Below are positions 49,252-52,977 of a stretch of DNA of 64,000 nt, one piece after another (within the stretch, counting starts at the first letter, position 1; the number at the start of each line of letters is the position of its first letter). Origin of the DNA: an uncultured Armatimonadota bacterium (GTDB lineage: Bacteria; Armatimonadota; Fimbriimonadia; Fimbriimonadales; Fimbriimonadaceae); contig CAILEM010000109.1 of the NCBI GenBank assembly GCA_903833215.1, forward strand, positions 1 to 64,000. Direction: 5' to 3'. The translations under genes were made by a program, and so were the position numbers. A model generated the notes under the pieces. That model was not told the origin of the DNA. It did not search any database and was given only the letters and a program-made list of their open reading frames with translations.

Positions 49252-50631
49252 TCACGGGTTGTTGATCCACTTGCAGTGACCATCGGTATAGGCGACAGCA
49301 CGTCCGCCGGGGCCATCGATGTATCCCAGGATGGTGCTGGCGGGCTCCTCTATTTTGGTCATTTCCCCGCCAGCGAAGGTGTACTTGAACCCGCTGAGAA
49401 GACTGGGATCTTTCAGGTACGGACCGAGCAGTTGATCGAGGTTGCTGCCCTGGAGGGGCAGTTTGTCGTCCATATCTCTCGCGTTCATGATGAAAGCGAG
49501 AGCGACTTGCTTCGCCTGGTTCAGGAGCCTCGTCTTGAGGGCAGATTCCTTTGCCTTGAGGTAGGCCTCAAGTGGAACCTTGACGATGGACCGGACGACG
49601 AGCGAACCTTGATTTAGGTAGCTAACGGCATTGTTCTTGGGTGAAAGCTCTCCTCGATTCCCGTCTGTCGTTAAAACCGAGAGTTCATTCTCCTTGGCAT
49701 CAGGCGCGGAAATGACGACTGATGGAGCGTTTACACCCGTCTTCTTTAGAGAAAGTGTGGCGGACATGTCCTGCACGACAAGATCCGGCGCGTTGCCTTT
49801 TCCAATCGCGGAGATCTCGTCGGGAGGTGCCGGACTCGGCGTCACTTTCATCGCTCTACGGTCAACGACATACCAAGTGCGCTTGGAAGGCTTCTTAGGC
49901 ACCCGTTCAATGTGCAGCACGTACATCTGGAGGTTGGAACTCCAGAAAGGAATACAGGTCTGACCGGGCATCTTGATCGCCTCACTGAGTGCGCCCTCGG
50001 TTCCAAAGAAACGCATCGTTGGAGGATCCATTGGCGCGGGCGCCCCGTCCCTCGTCGAAATGTACGGTGGATGTTCGATCAACGCCACGACGGGTTTGTA
50101 CGGTGAAGGATTGACCTCGAATGGTTTCGAATCGTCAAACTGCCCAATATTGATAGTCTTCCCAGAACTGGACAGGACAAACACCGAGGATGGATTTCGG
50201 GTGGATTCTGGCCCTTCTGTGAACACAGCCTCAACAACTAAAGAGGAGGATCCCGAAATCCACTGCACCGACCGAATCTGACCGCGGTTAGCCTTCATGC
50301 GCATGAGCGTCGTCGTCTTGCGTGTCACCGCGCTCCAAGTGATGATCTGTTGCTCGAAGTCAGGCATGTGGCGTTCATCGGGCTTGCCCGTCAGCACTTC
50401 GGACATCATTGCTGGCGTCAGGTCTGCATACATCCTAATCGCAGCCAATTTCTCCCCGTCCGCTGACCACGCGACTTCTTGTATCGTCGGCCCGCAGACA
50501 AAGTCCTGCGGAAGGAGCATATATGCGTTCTTCCCGCTGAGCACAAAATCGCGTTGAGGGTCCATTTGCCCAACTGACAATGAGGCTATTGCGAGCGCCG
50601 CAATCAGCGAAATCCCACGCACGTTAATCAC
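49252..50631 (-). CDS. Secreted hypothetical protein with prepilin-like C-terminal segment
   Basis: A 459-residue protein starting at GTG 50631 with a signal peptide (MINVRGISLIAALAIASLSVG). The central part alternates short beta-rich segments (EVAWSADGEKLAAIRMYADL and similar), as in PD40/TolB-like propeller proteins. The last 100 residues (LNQAKQVALAFIMNARDMDDKLP to GRAVAYTDGHCKWI) closely resemble the mature part of prepilin-type proteins with their H-x9-DG ending, but without the pilin helix. It looks like a fusion of a propeller-like domain with a pseudopilin-type tail. Its role is unknown. Confidence 0.6.
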   Translation of the reverse strand: MINVRGISLIAALAIASLSVGQMDPQRDFVLSGKNAYMLLPQDFVCGPTIQEVAWSADGEKLAAIRMYADLTPAMMSEVLTGKPDERHMPDFEQQIITWSAVTRKTTTLMRMKANRGQIRSVQWISGSSSLVVEAVFTEGPESTRNPSSVFVLSSSGKTINIGQFDDSKPFEVNPSPYKPVVALIEHPPYISTRDGAPAPMDPPTMRFFGTEGALSEAIKMPGQTCIPFWSSNLQMYVLHIERVPKKPSKRTWYVVDRRAMKVTPSPAPPDEISAIGKGNAPDLVVQDMSATLSLKKTGVNAPSVVISAPDAKENELSVLTTDGNRGELSPKNNAVSYLNQGSLVVRSIVKVPLEAYLKAKESALKTRLLNQAKQVALAFIMNARDMDDKLPLQGSNLDQLLGPYLKDPSLLSGFKYTFAGGEMTKIEEPASTILGYIDGPGGRAVAYTDGHCKWINNP

Positions 50632-50738
50632 AAAAACTTAGACGCGCGGACATGTGTAAATAGTTGCCAGTTTTCTGGCACTTTTATTTTTCCAGTCGAC
50701 ACTTTGGCCGAATGCACCTATTTCCAATCTTTGACCAC

Positions 50739-50880
50739 CCCGTAATCGGCGTCTCCGTGGCGTCGCAGCCGCTGTTGGAATGCCTGTCAATTTGATATAT
50801 CCGACGGCGTTTCGATCGAATGAACTCTCCTGCTCTCAATAACTGATCCCCCCGTAGTCGACGTCTCCGTGGCGTCGCAG
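50739..50880 (-). repeat. Two single REP copies upstream of the transposase gene
   Basis: REP sequences at 50739-50767 and 50850-50880 read CCCGTAGTCGACGTCTCCGT-like on the plus strand: a GTAG (GTAA in the first) tetranucleotide, then a hairpin of CGACG / CGTCG around a 9-nt loop. They are in the opposite orientation to the copies at 51034 and in the tandem array. Confidence 0.8.
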
Positions 50881-51033
50881 CTGACGTTTGGATTCATTGT
50901 GCTGATTGGGTGGTCTGAGAAAATTGCATCGAATGGTCGTGCAGCGACCAACCAATTACACACCAATCGGATGGATTTGCTACCTGGTTCAGGGCCTTCT
51001 GAGAAAATCACAGGATGCAGCCCCACGTTTCCG

Positions 51034-51063
51034 GACGACGCCACGGAGACGTCGACTACGGGG
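51034..51063 (+). repeat. Single REP copy
   Basis: GACGACGCCACGGAGACGTC and the following GACTAC match the array units at 51.7-52.0 kb and are inverted relative to the copy at 50850-50880. The arms CGACG and CGTCG can form a hairpin; the tetranucleotide GTAG appears on the minus strand at its foot. Confidence 0.8.
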
Positions 51064-51204
51064 CTGGTCAGAAGCCTTGTTGCTATATTGTGTGCCACTG
51101 CGTAACGCCACCAGATGTCGATCTGGATGAATCCACGGGCGTTCTCGGTATTAGGGCTTCCGTATCAATGAGGGTTTCTAGTAGCATTTCAGGCTATGTC
51201 AGGA

Positions 51205-51687
51205 ATGCGACAAAGACCACATCGGTTAGCGCCGTCGTCTTATGTGGGACAAATTGCGATTTCGTTCACCGCTTGCGTCGAAGATCGCCGGAGAGCATTC
51301 CTACTCCATTCCGATATCGCACCGCTGCTATCGATAATGACTGAGGAATTTGGGAAATACCAATGTCGGATTCCGATCTACTGCTTCATGCCAGACCACC
51401 TGCACGTCATCTCGATGGGAATGACTCACCAATCGGATGGGAAGCGAGCGATGGATTCATTCAAGTCCAAGAGCGGTCTGTACTTGCGGAACTCAGGGGC
51501 GGAGTATCGATGGCAAACGGATTATTACGACCGCATCATCAGGCGGTCTGAGGAGTGGCGAAAGAAGGTCTTCTACGTATTCCAGAACCCGGTCCGAGCT
51601 GGAATCGTCGAGGACCCCTGGAATTACGCCCTTACTGGATCTATTGGCTACAGCCTAGAAGAGTTGATCCACGACGCTGCATGGTAA
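51205..51687 (+). CDS. REP-associated tyrosine transposase (RAYT, Y1/HUH family)
   Basis: A 160-residue single-domain transposase. The HUH metal motif is in CFMPDHLHVI (His-Leu-His), and the catalytic tyrosine region is YYDRIIRR, followed by VFYVFQNPVRAGIVEDPWNY, all typical of RAYTs. Such enzymes cleave single-stranded REP hairpins at a GTAG/GGAG-type tetranucleotide and are thought to spread REP sequences. REP copies flank it on both sides. The ATG at 51205 (MRQRPHRL) gives the usual N-terminus; one at 51196 is also open. All motifs look intact. Confidence 0.88.
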   Translation: MRQRPHRLAPSSYVGQIAISFTACVEDRRRAFLLHSDIAPLLSIMTEEFGKYQCRIPIYCFMPDHLHVISMGMTHQSDGKRAMDSFKSKSGLYLRNSGAEYRWQTDYYDRIIRRSEEWRKKVFYVFQNPVRAGIVEDPWNYALTGSIGYSLEELIHDAAW

Positions 51688-51743
51688 CGGTATTCGTCTG
51701 ATTTCGGATATGCGCTATCGTCGGTGTCATGTTCTCAAGGGGT

Positions 51744-52047
51744 GATGTCACCAGATATCGATCCGGACGACGCCACGGAGATGTTGACCACGGGTCTGGT
51801 CAGAATGCGTGATGTCAGTAATGTCACCGGATGTTGATCCGGACGACGCCACGGAGACGTCGACTACGGGGCTGGTCACAATGCGTGATGTCAGTGATGT
51901 CACCGGATGTTGATCCGGACGACGCCACGGAGACGTCGACTACGGGGCTGGTCACAATGCGTGATGTCAGTGATGTCACCAGATGTTGATCCGGACGACG
52001 CCACGGAGACGTTGACCACGCGTCTGGTCAGAATGCGTGATGTCAGC
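51744..52047 (+). repeat. Four tandem 76-bp REP units
   Basis: Units start (at GTCACC) at 51747, 51823, 51899 and 51975, an exact period of 76 bp. Each contains GATCCGGACGACGCCACGGA, then GACGTCGACTACGGGGCTGG or a variant with GTTGACCACG, then TCAGAATGCGTGATGTCAGT. The second and third units are nearly identical. The REP hairpin is inside each. There are no variable spacers, so it is not a CRISPR array. It lies between the two RAYT genes. Confidence 0.9.
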
Positions 52048-52090
52048 GTGCCTTGTCCAGAGAACGCATCGGAGGTGCCGGTCACATGGC

Positions 52091-52561
52091 TTAGTCGGGA
52101 GCGCCGGCGACCCAGAGGCCGGCGTATTCCTCGGGGTCGTCGGCTAGCTCTTGCTGGGTGGGAGACTCGAAGATTTCTTCCCAACGGACCTCGAGTTCGG
52201 ATTCATCTCGAATAATTCGGTCGTAGCTCTCCGCATAGAAAGGTGGAAATCGCTCACCGGATTTCTTGATGATCAACTTCCCTGTTTTGGTTTTGGCTTT
52301 CTCAACCACTTCAGAGAGCTCATACGGCTCGCCATTGGGGCTCTCAAGAACCTTGAAGATGAGGTCGGTGCGGTCGGGCAAAACGCACAAGATCAACAAC
52401 TCCCAGCGCCGACCGTCTGGCTTCACCAGGTTTCGAACAAGTAGATGCCGCTCGGCTTCGTCCAGGGACCGTCGATGTCGAAACGTGACAAAGTAGGTGA
52501 CGTCATCTGCGCGCCAATGAGGCAGTCGGCCTCGCCATATCGAGAAGTTCTTGAAGGCCAT
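52091..52561 (-). CDS. RAYT-like protein with degenerate HUH motif
   Basis: A 156-residue homologue of Y1 transposases. It keeps the N-terminal WRGRLPHWRADDVTYFVTFRHR segment, the ESYDRIIRDESEL region with the catalytic-type Tyr, and the late WEEIFESPTQQELADDPEEYAGLW segment. In the metal motif, where active enzymes have MPNHVHLL-like sequence, it has LPDRTDLIF, so both histidines are gone. It is unlikely to cut DNA but may still bind REP hairpins. It lies on the opposite side of the REP array from the intact copy and points toward it. Confidence 0.75.
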   Translation of the reverse strand: MAFKNFSIWRGRLPHWRADDVTYFVTFRHRRSLDEAERHLLVRNLVKPDGRRWELLILCVLPDRTDLIFKVLESPNGEPYELSEVVEKAKTKTGKLIIKKSGERFPPFYAESYDRIIRDESELEVRWEEIFESPTQQELADDPEEYAGLWVAGAPD

Positions 52562-52635: not shown

Positions 52636-52977
52636 CTACGAAAGGGCCGCATCGCCGTGTTCGCCCGTCCGAATACGAATCGCATCCAGAATCTCGGTTA
52701 CAAAGATCTTTCCGTCACCAATTTCGCCGGTTTGGGTTGCTTTAATAATCGCGTCGACGGCTTCTTCAAGGTCGTCGTCCTTCACGACGACTTCGACATG
52801 CATCTTTGGGAGGAGATTAACGGCGTAGGTGCTACCCCGATATTTGTCGGTTCGGCCCATTTGCCGACCGTAACCCCTCACCTGACCACAACTCAATCCA
52901 GAAATTCCAGCATCCTCGAGGGCTTGCTTGACATCTTCCAGTTTGTTAACTCGAATAAAGGCTTCGATACGTTTCAT
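52636..52977 (-). CDS. PII nitrogen regulatory protein (GlnB/GlnK)
   Basis: A 113-residue PII protein. The T loop runs about residues 37-55 with the modifiable Tyr51 in GSTYAVN; MHVEVVVKDDDLEEAVDAII and TGEIGDGKIFV are the C-terminal signature. It binds ATP/ADP and 2-oxoglutarate and controls nitrogen metabolism enzymes or transporters. No amtB or glnD is next to it, so the target is unknown. The histidine kinase gene is divergent, 88 bp away. Confidence 0.95.
   Translation of the reverse strand: MKRIEAFIRVNKLEDVKQALEDAGISGLSCGQVRGYGRQMGRTDKYRGSTYAVNLLPKMHVEVVVKDDDLEEAVDAIIKATQTGEIGDGKIFVTEILDAIRIRTGEHGDAALS

What the first reader, a model, noticed from the sequence alone, without database searches (positions are those of the whole stretch)
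51034..52561. REP/RAYT locus: intact and HUH-less transposases flanking a REP array
Seen: REP-like units (GTAG tetranucleotide plus a CGACG/CGTCG hairpin) in both orientations, four of them in exact 76-bp tandem, with an intact Y1 RAYT (HLH motif, YYDRIIRR) on one side and a RAYT homologue in which both metal-binding His are replaced (LPDRTDLIF) on the other. Known: RAYTs are single-copy, domesticated IS200-like enzymes that mobilise REPs. Inference: the degenerate copy may be a REP-binding regulator or inhibitor of the active one. A paired active/inactive RAYT arrangement in this type of bacterium would be worth describing.
Basis: partly seen in the sequence, partly recalled or inferred. Interest (0 to 1): 0.8.

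Follow-up and report, generated by a model that had tools for sequence, protein, structure and literature searches.

The report
Dead REP transposase became core gene
Next to an ordinary REP element system sits a transposase relative that has lost its whole cutting site, yet every well-sequenced member of one bacterial family (Fimbriimonadaceae) keeps exactly one copy, so a mobile-element enzyme has become a universally kept, non-cutting host protein whose task is still unknown.

Summary
The window holds a GTAG-REPtron: an intact RAYT, seven REPs (four at an exact 76-bp period), and a RAYT homologue without HUH. The interpretation as a matched active/inactive pair does not hold. The HUH-less gene is found in 70 of 70 good Fimbriimonadaceae genomes (32 of 32 genera), one orthologue each, and in no sister family. 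It is one clade (support 100/100) with dN/dS of 0.02-0.10. All 74 orthologues aligned lack both HUH histidines together, the catalytic tyrosine and the metal-binding asparagine. At least 23 good genomes keep it with no other RAYT match at all, two of them only 1.5 Mb. The active RAYT and its REPs are lineage-specific; the nearest relatives have at most about 80 bp where the window has 1,459 bp. So this is an old, complete exaptation: a catalytically dead TnpA_REP fixed as a host gene, often directly behind glnB (PII), beside which a REPtron later landed. The blocks kept most strictly are those that in E. coli TnpA_REP touch the GTAG tetranucleotide; the C-terminal half has turned strongly acidic. 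I think it binds without cutting, most likely a folded nucleic acid, possibly a protein. The target is unknown.

The parts
51196..51687 (+). Intact Y1 RAYT (TnpA_REP), 163 aa; HUH codons 51397-51405, catalytic Tyr127 codon 51574-51576, Asn131 codon 51586-51588
52091..52561 (-). HUH-less, Tyr-less RAYT-derived protein, 156 aa; core gene of Fimbriimonadaceae. Former HUH codons 52364-52372 (R64, D66); former Tyr codon 52175-52177 (E129); former Asn codon 52163-52165 (S133); retained K90, D114, R118
50742..50765 (+). GTAG-REP unit (2 mismatches)
50854..50877 (+). GTAG-REP unit (exact)
51036..51059 (-). GTAG-REP unit (exact)
51742..52045 (-). Tandem array of four REP-bearing 76-bp units; REPs at 51768-51791, 51844-51867, 51920-51943, 51996-52019
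50632..52090 (.). REPtron segment (RAYT plus 7 REPs), 1,459 bp; the matching place in the nearest relatives is at most about 80 bp without RAYT or REP
52636..52977 (-). glnB (PII protein), immediate upstream co-directional neighbour of the dead gene; this order is widely conserved and overlaps by 4 bp in four genomes

Best explanation
The HUH-less gene is a finished domestication. An ancestor of Fimbriimonadaceae took over a TnpA_REP/RAYT protein, lost its entire active site (both HUH His, the nucleophilic Tyr, the metal-binding Asn) and fixed it as a single-copy host gene, commonly the gene behind glnB (shown by comparison). It works by binding, not cutting (inferred from the loss of all catalytic residues). 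Its strictly kept surface is the N-terminal arm with beta-1 and the YDRIIRD strand (beta-4), the regions with which E. coli TnpA_REP holds the single-stranded GTAG beside the hairpin. I therefore think it most likely recognises a short single-stranded motif beside a hairpin in RNA or ssDNA and acts as a non-cleaving regulator (inferred, about 0.45 among mechanisms). The intact RAYT and its REPs beside it in this genome are a separate, ordinary REPtron that came to lie there later.
For: Universality and vertical descent: 70/70 good family genomes, 32/32 genera, one orthologue each, none in the 28 other genomes of the order; one clade, 100/100, stem 1.9; pairwise identities follow those of glnB (rho 0.43, 0/999 permutations). 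Function: dN/dS 0.018-0.096 in close pairs; kept in two 1.5-Mb genomes. Catalysis gone: 0/74 with HxH, 0/74 with Tyr, 0/74 with Asn at the catalytic columns, against H 37/37, H 36/37, Y 37/37, N 36/37 in intact RAYTs. Binding elements kept: K90 73/74, D114 73/74, R118 74/74, which align with E. coli K81 and with the GTAG-contact positions 100 and 104 (PMC8266576); conservation peaks in N-arm, beta-1 and beta-4 and is lower in the former HUH and Tyr elements. Independence from the REPtron.
Against: The protein is acidic (median pI 5.4 against 9.0 for intact RAYTs; C-terminal half about -10), which speaks against simple retention of hairpin-DNA binding. The third GTAG contact, Q95, is replaced by Tyr in 58/74. 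Beta-1 and beta-4 are core strands, so conservation there may be structural. No nucleic-acid target was found; upstream regions show no obvious shared motif by eye. No usable fold model: AlphaFold2 with the three admissible sequences gave pLDDT 36. Absence of RAYT in the 27 genomes rests on one profile and partly on draft assemblies.
Confidence: 0.72

Rival explanations
1. The dead RAYT is a protein-partner module (adaptor) that no longer binds nucleic acid, working with PII (GlnB) or another host protein.
For: Directly behind glnB on the same strand in 30 of 74 loci, with 4-bp stop/start overlap in four (L058, L064, L066, L068), and in further loci with one gene-sized gap; acidic C-terminal half.
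Against: glnB is not adjacent in about half of the loci, yet the dead gene is kept there too; the deep-branching 1.5-Mb genomes have it away from glnB; adjacency may be inherited synteny only.
Confidence: 0.33
2. It is a REP-binding regulator or dominant-negative inhibitor of the neighbouring active RAYT.
For: Shared ancestry and retained GTAG-contact positions D114 and R118; adjacency in this genome.
Against: 23 of 27 re-searched good genomes keep the dead gene without any other RAYT match and the other four have only scraps; adjacency seen only in this genome; this REP family absent from nearest relatives; the two proteins are distant.
Confidence: 0.06
3. A new enzyme: the fold has acquired a different active site.
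For: Invariant polar residues H15, Y23, E111, R118 and near-invariant K90, D114, E87, E81, E122.
Against: H15 and the LPHW motif are also present in HUH-intact relatives, so they are inherited; Y113 alternates with Phe (24/74), so it is not a substitute nucleophile; no motif resembling a known catalytic set was recognised.
Confidence: 0.1
4. A decaying pseudogene of a RAYT, or a hitch-hiker.
For: Active site gone; the literature treats motif-less members as non-functional (PMC6006769).
Against: Open frame in essentially all orthologues, dN/dS 0.02-0.10, 70/70 genomes.
Confidence: 0.01

Closest known systems
TnpA_REP / RAYT (REP-associated tyrosine transposase; E. coli TnpA_REP, PDB 4ER8)
   Same: Homologous over nearly the full length (NF047646 E 8e-8; profile-profile 99.3%, E 1e-20); retains positions equivalent to E. 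coli K81, E100 and R104.
   Different: Both HUH His, the Tyr and the Asn lost in 74/74; mostly acidic instead of basic; family-wide core gene in place of the patchy distribution of RAYTs; persists without intact RAYTs.
REPtron with GTAG-REPs (Di Nocera et al. 2013, PMC3733652)
   Same: The window RAYT with seven GTAG-REPs in both orientations is an ordinary REPtron.
   Different: Host phylum Armatimonadota is not among the phyla listed for GTAG repeats in that paper; four units in exact 76-bp head-to-tail array; three RAYTs of one clade in one genome, each with a different flanking GTAG repeat.
TldR (TnpB-like nuclease-dead repressors; PMC13418256 and its reference 5)
   Same: A mobile-element enzyme that lost catalysis and is kept as a binder.
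   Different: TldR derives from TnpB (RuvC nuclease, RNA-guided); this derives from the TnpA/HUH side, no guide RNA is known for it, and it is fixed across a whole bacterial family.
Prp8 (reverse transcriptase inactivated and recruited to the spliceosome; PMC8987985)
   Same: Inactivated mobile-element enzyme as a core host component.
   Different: Unrelated fold and lineage; function known for Prp8, unknown here.

Membership tests
TnpA_REP / RAYT (catalytic family), applied to 52091-52561 | Homology over the core domain | tested here: met
   NF047646 E 8e-8; hhalign 99.3%, E 1e-20
TnpA_REP / RAYT (catalytic family), applied to 52091-52561 | HUH motif | tested here: not met
   No orthologue of 74 has His at both positions
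TnpA_REP / RAYT (catalytic family), applied to 52091-52561 | Catalytic Tyr and Asn in Y...NP | tested here: not met
   0/74 Tyr, 0/74 Asn
TnpA_REP / RAYT (catalytic family), applied to 52091-52561 | Score above the curated family cut-off | tested here: not met
   32.3 bits against 80
TnpA_REP / RAYT (catalytic family), applied to 52091-52561 | Association with cognate REPs | tested here: inconclusive
   REPs of this locus absent from the nearest relatives; other REP types were not searched genome-wide in every relative
TnpA_REP / RAYT (catalytic family), applied to 52091-52561 | Cleavage and rejoining of single-stranded REP DNA | not testable with these tools
   needs purified protein
TnpA_REP / RAYT, applied to 51196-51687 | HUH, Tyr, Asn present | tested here: met
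   H68, H70, Y127, N131
TnpA_REP / RAYT, applied to 51196-51687 | Score above the curated family cut-offs | tested here: inconclusive
   Pfam Y1_Tnp above cut-off; NCBIfam 79.2 bits, just under 80
REPtron (RAYT flanked by GTAG-REPs) | RAYT gene flanked by GTAG-tagged palindromes that recur in the genome | tested here: met
   Seven flanking units; 46 in genome, 0 control
Exapted, catalytically dead mobile-element protein (TldR-like in kind) | Catalytic residues lost, purifying selection, vertical descent | tested here: met
Exapted, catalytically dead mobile-element protein (TldR-like in kind) | Retained nucleic-acid binding with regulatory effect | not testable with these tools
   Only indirect: retained contact positions, with acidic pI speaking against

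The most novel reading that the evidence does not exclude
A TnpA-side counterpart of TldR: a HUH-dead TnpA_REP that has become a family-wide core regulator, recognising a tetranucleotide-plus-hairpin in cellular RNA or ssDNA and coupled to PII nitrogen/energy signalling through its glnB gene neighbourhood.
Probability: 0.2. Interest if true: 0.85.

Novelty: new variant of a known kind. Interest (0 to 1): 0.62.

Why it matters
RAYTs are called domesticated, but what they do for the host is an open question (PMC6006769 says their host function is uncharacterised), and members without HUH and Tyr were set aside there as non-functional (722 of 924 sequences kept). Here is a RAYT descendant in which catalysis is gone and selection is strong, in a whole bacterial family, in genomes with no RAYT, down to 1.5 Mb. 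It separates whatever the fold does by binding from transposition, and gives a clean system to ask what that is good for. It also warns that surveys filtering on HUH discard real host genes.

Tried and rejected
(1) Pair of active and inactive RAYT as a conserved unit: rejected by synteny, distribution and tree. (2) Pseudogene: rejected. (3) dnaK as operon partner: dnaK lies downstream on the same strand in 17 of 56 long loci, but the spacers carry a TTGAGT-N7-ACTCAAG-like repeat that I read as a HAIR/HspR site (from memory), so dnaK probably has its own promoter; no convincing CIRCE element. (4) Shared motif upstream of the dead gene: none seen by eye. (5) AlphaFold2 with the three admissible sequences: pLDDT 36, not used, no fold search made. 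(6) Relatives in viral contigs to deepen the alignment: none. (8) One search used the antisense translation of glnB by mistake; replaced. (9) PDB sequence search with the dead protein: nothing. (10) The ORF clustering hid the dead ORF in 20 loci; neighbours were recounted by tblastn.

Full report
WHAT IS THERE. Between a gene at 49252-50631 (-; no Pfam family) and glnB at 52636-52977 (-; Pfam P-II) lie two RAYT-related genes and seven REPs. The REP unit is GTAG-T-CGACGTCTCCGTGGCGTCG: the tetranucleotide, then a 7-bp hairpin with a 5-nt loop. Two units are on the + strand, five on the - strand, and the last four repeat at exactly 76 bp. With up to three mismatches the 24-mer occurs 46 times in the 6.2-Mb genome and its reversed control never. 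The RAYT at 51196-51687 has HUH (H68, H70) and the Y...NP motif with Tyr127 and Asn131. This half of the locus is an ordinary REPtron. GTAG repeats were listed for Proteobacteria, Cyanobacteria, Chloroflexi and the PVC group in 2013 (PMC3733652), not for Armatimonadota, so the taxonomic record may be new; I did not search later literature exhaustively.

HOST. Close relatives found in named genome records are an uncultured Armatimonadetes bacterium (75% identity) and a Fimbriimonadaceae bacterium (60%). I use Fimbriimonadaceae for the group the tools call f1.

THE HUH-LESS PROTEIN IS A CORE GENE. Searching whole genomes with the 156-aa protein gives 80 of 85 family genomes; all five without it are under 90% complete. 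Among genomes at least 90% complete and at most 5% contaminated it is 70 of 70, in 32 of 32 genera, with one orthologue per genome; the one second match at this threshold, in G032, is a separate HUH-intact RAYT (L119). None of the 28 other genomes of the order has it at E 1e-10. Two 1.5-Mb genomes (G047, G065) keep it. Close pairs give dN/dS of 0.018 to 0.096 (Nei-Gojobori). Pairwise identities follow those of the neighbouring glnB (rho 0.43, 0 of 999 permutations reach it; weaker for dnaK, 10 of 999; a few genomes enter twice).

IT IS A RAYT DESCENDANT WITHOUT AN ACTIVE SITE. Profile-profile comparison of 74 orthologues with 37 intact RAYTs gives 99.3% and E 1e-20 over 140 columns. In a tree of 111 proteins the 74 form one side of a branch with 100/100 support and a stem of 1.9 changes per column; the HUH-intact L119 joins next with weak support, and the window RAYT sits elsewhere with its two own-genome paralogues. 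At the four catalytic columns intact RAYTs read H 37/37, H 36/37, Y 37/37, N 36/37; no dead orthologue has both His, and none has the Tyr or the Asn. The tyrosine in ESYDRI that might look like a nucleophile is Phe in 24 of 74. Retained are K90 (73/74), D114 (73/74) and R118 (74/74), which align with E. coli K81, E100 and R104. The paper on REP recognition names Q95, D100 and R104 among the residues that contact GTAG, and places these contacts around beta-1, beta-4 and the C-terminus (PMC8266576; it writes D100 where the chain printed has E). Mean frequency of the commonest residue in the dead family is highest in the N-arm (0.80), beta-1 (0.82) and beta-4 (0.79), lower in the former HUH strand (0.64) and the former Tyr helix (0.53) (strand names taken over from the E. 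coli protein by alignment).

IT DOES NOT DEPEND ON THE REPTRON. Of 27 good family genomes re-searched with the RAYT profile at E up to 1, none has a match over the cut-off. In 21 the best match is the dead gene itself, and six have no match although they carry the dead gene by protein search. Only four show anything else: stop-containing remnants in G079 and G082, a 21-residue piece in G063, and a weak partial match inside an 827-aa frame in G020. So 23 genomes have no sign of another RAYT. The REP family of the window is absent from the nearest relatives G004, G012 and G019, and RAYTs of the window type occur in 11 of 85 genomes, in G012 and G019 on contigs other than that of the dead gene. 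In L123, L124 and L127 (the same three genomes G019, G004, G012) the dead gene is followed after at most about 80 bp by the 49252-type gene, where the window has 1,459 bp with RAYT and REPs. The simplest history is a REPtron arriving beside an old resident gene.

NEIGHBOURHOOD. glnB lies directly upstream on the same strand in 30 of 74 loci (gap -4 to 237 bp; 4-bp overlaps in L058, L064, L066, L068), and in further loci 580 to 1,024 bp upstream. dnaK lies downstream on the same strand in 17 of 56 long loci, behind what looks like its own heat-shock repeat. The order glnB - dead gene - dnaK may be ancestral, but glnB is missing from the neighbourhood in about half of the loci, so the link is suggestive only.

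HOW IT MOST LIKELY WORKS. Shown: homology, loss of all catalytic residues, universality, selection, independence from intact RAYTs. Inferred: it acts by binding. For a nucleic-acid target speak the retained contact positions and the conserved beta-1/beta-4 region; against it speak the acidic charge (median pI 5.4 against 9.0; C-terminal part about -10 against -1; N-terminal 35 residues about +4) and the loss of Q95. I put nucleic acid at about 0.45, a protein partner such as PII at about 0.33, a new enzyme at about 0.1, and an inhibitor of the RAYT at about 0.06.

WHAT IS KNOWN. RAYTs are described as vertically inherited at the subgenus level and more like housekeeping genes than insertion sequences, with host function uncharacterised, and members without HUH and Y were excluded as non-functional (PMC6006769). 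Nuclease-dead TnpB proteins exapted as RNA-guided repressors are known (PMC13418256). I found no description of a HUH-dead RAYT fixed as a core gene in the papers searched; the library lacks most subscription journals, so this is not proof of novelty.

Noticed in passing
L035 (G000:C99:31486-31974) and L036 (G000:C59:8145-8618) against window 50742-52045: The same genome holds three RAYTs of one clade (78% and 41% identical to the window's), with different GTAG-tagged repeats: GTAGTCGGCGGTGATCGTACCGACG in a 74-76-bp-period array beside the C99 copy, and an inverted pair with TGTAGCCGCCGGATGTTTCGTGCCGGCG beside the C59 copy. A natural set for RAYT/REP co-divergence.
   Followed up: partly
L082, L083, L089, L095, L104, L118, L125 and others, spacer before dnaK: dnaK in these genomes is preceded by a TTGAGT-N7-ACTCAAG-like inverted repeat, which looks like a HAIR (HspR) site; no convincing CIRCE was found in the loci scanned.
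   Followed up: partly
L122 (G006:C5:19244-19660) and L041 (G000:C134:55611-56087): Two other RAYT-like proteins with single active-site changes: H.Q in place of HUH, and Y...SP in place of Y...NP.
   Followed up: no
G010:C1:291273-291296 and 291456-291941: A relative carries a related REP family (GTAGCCGACGCCTCCGTGGCGTCG) next to a RAYT 39% identical to the window's.
   Followed up: no
window 51102-51138: A decayed relative of the 76-bp tandem unit lies upstream of the RAYT gene (76-78% alike).
   Followed up: no
L123 and L127, next to the dead gene: The 49252-type gene (no Pfam family, window 49252-50631) is tandemly duplicated in two relatives.
   Followed up: no
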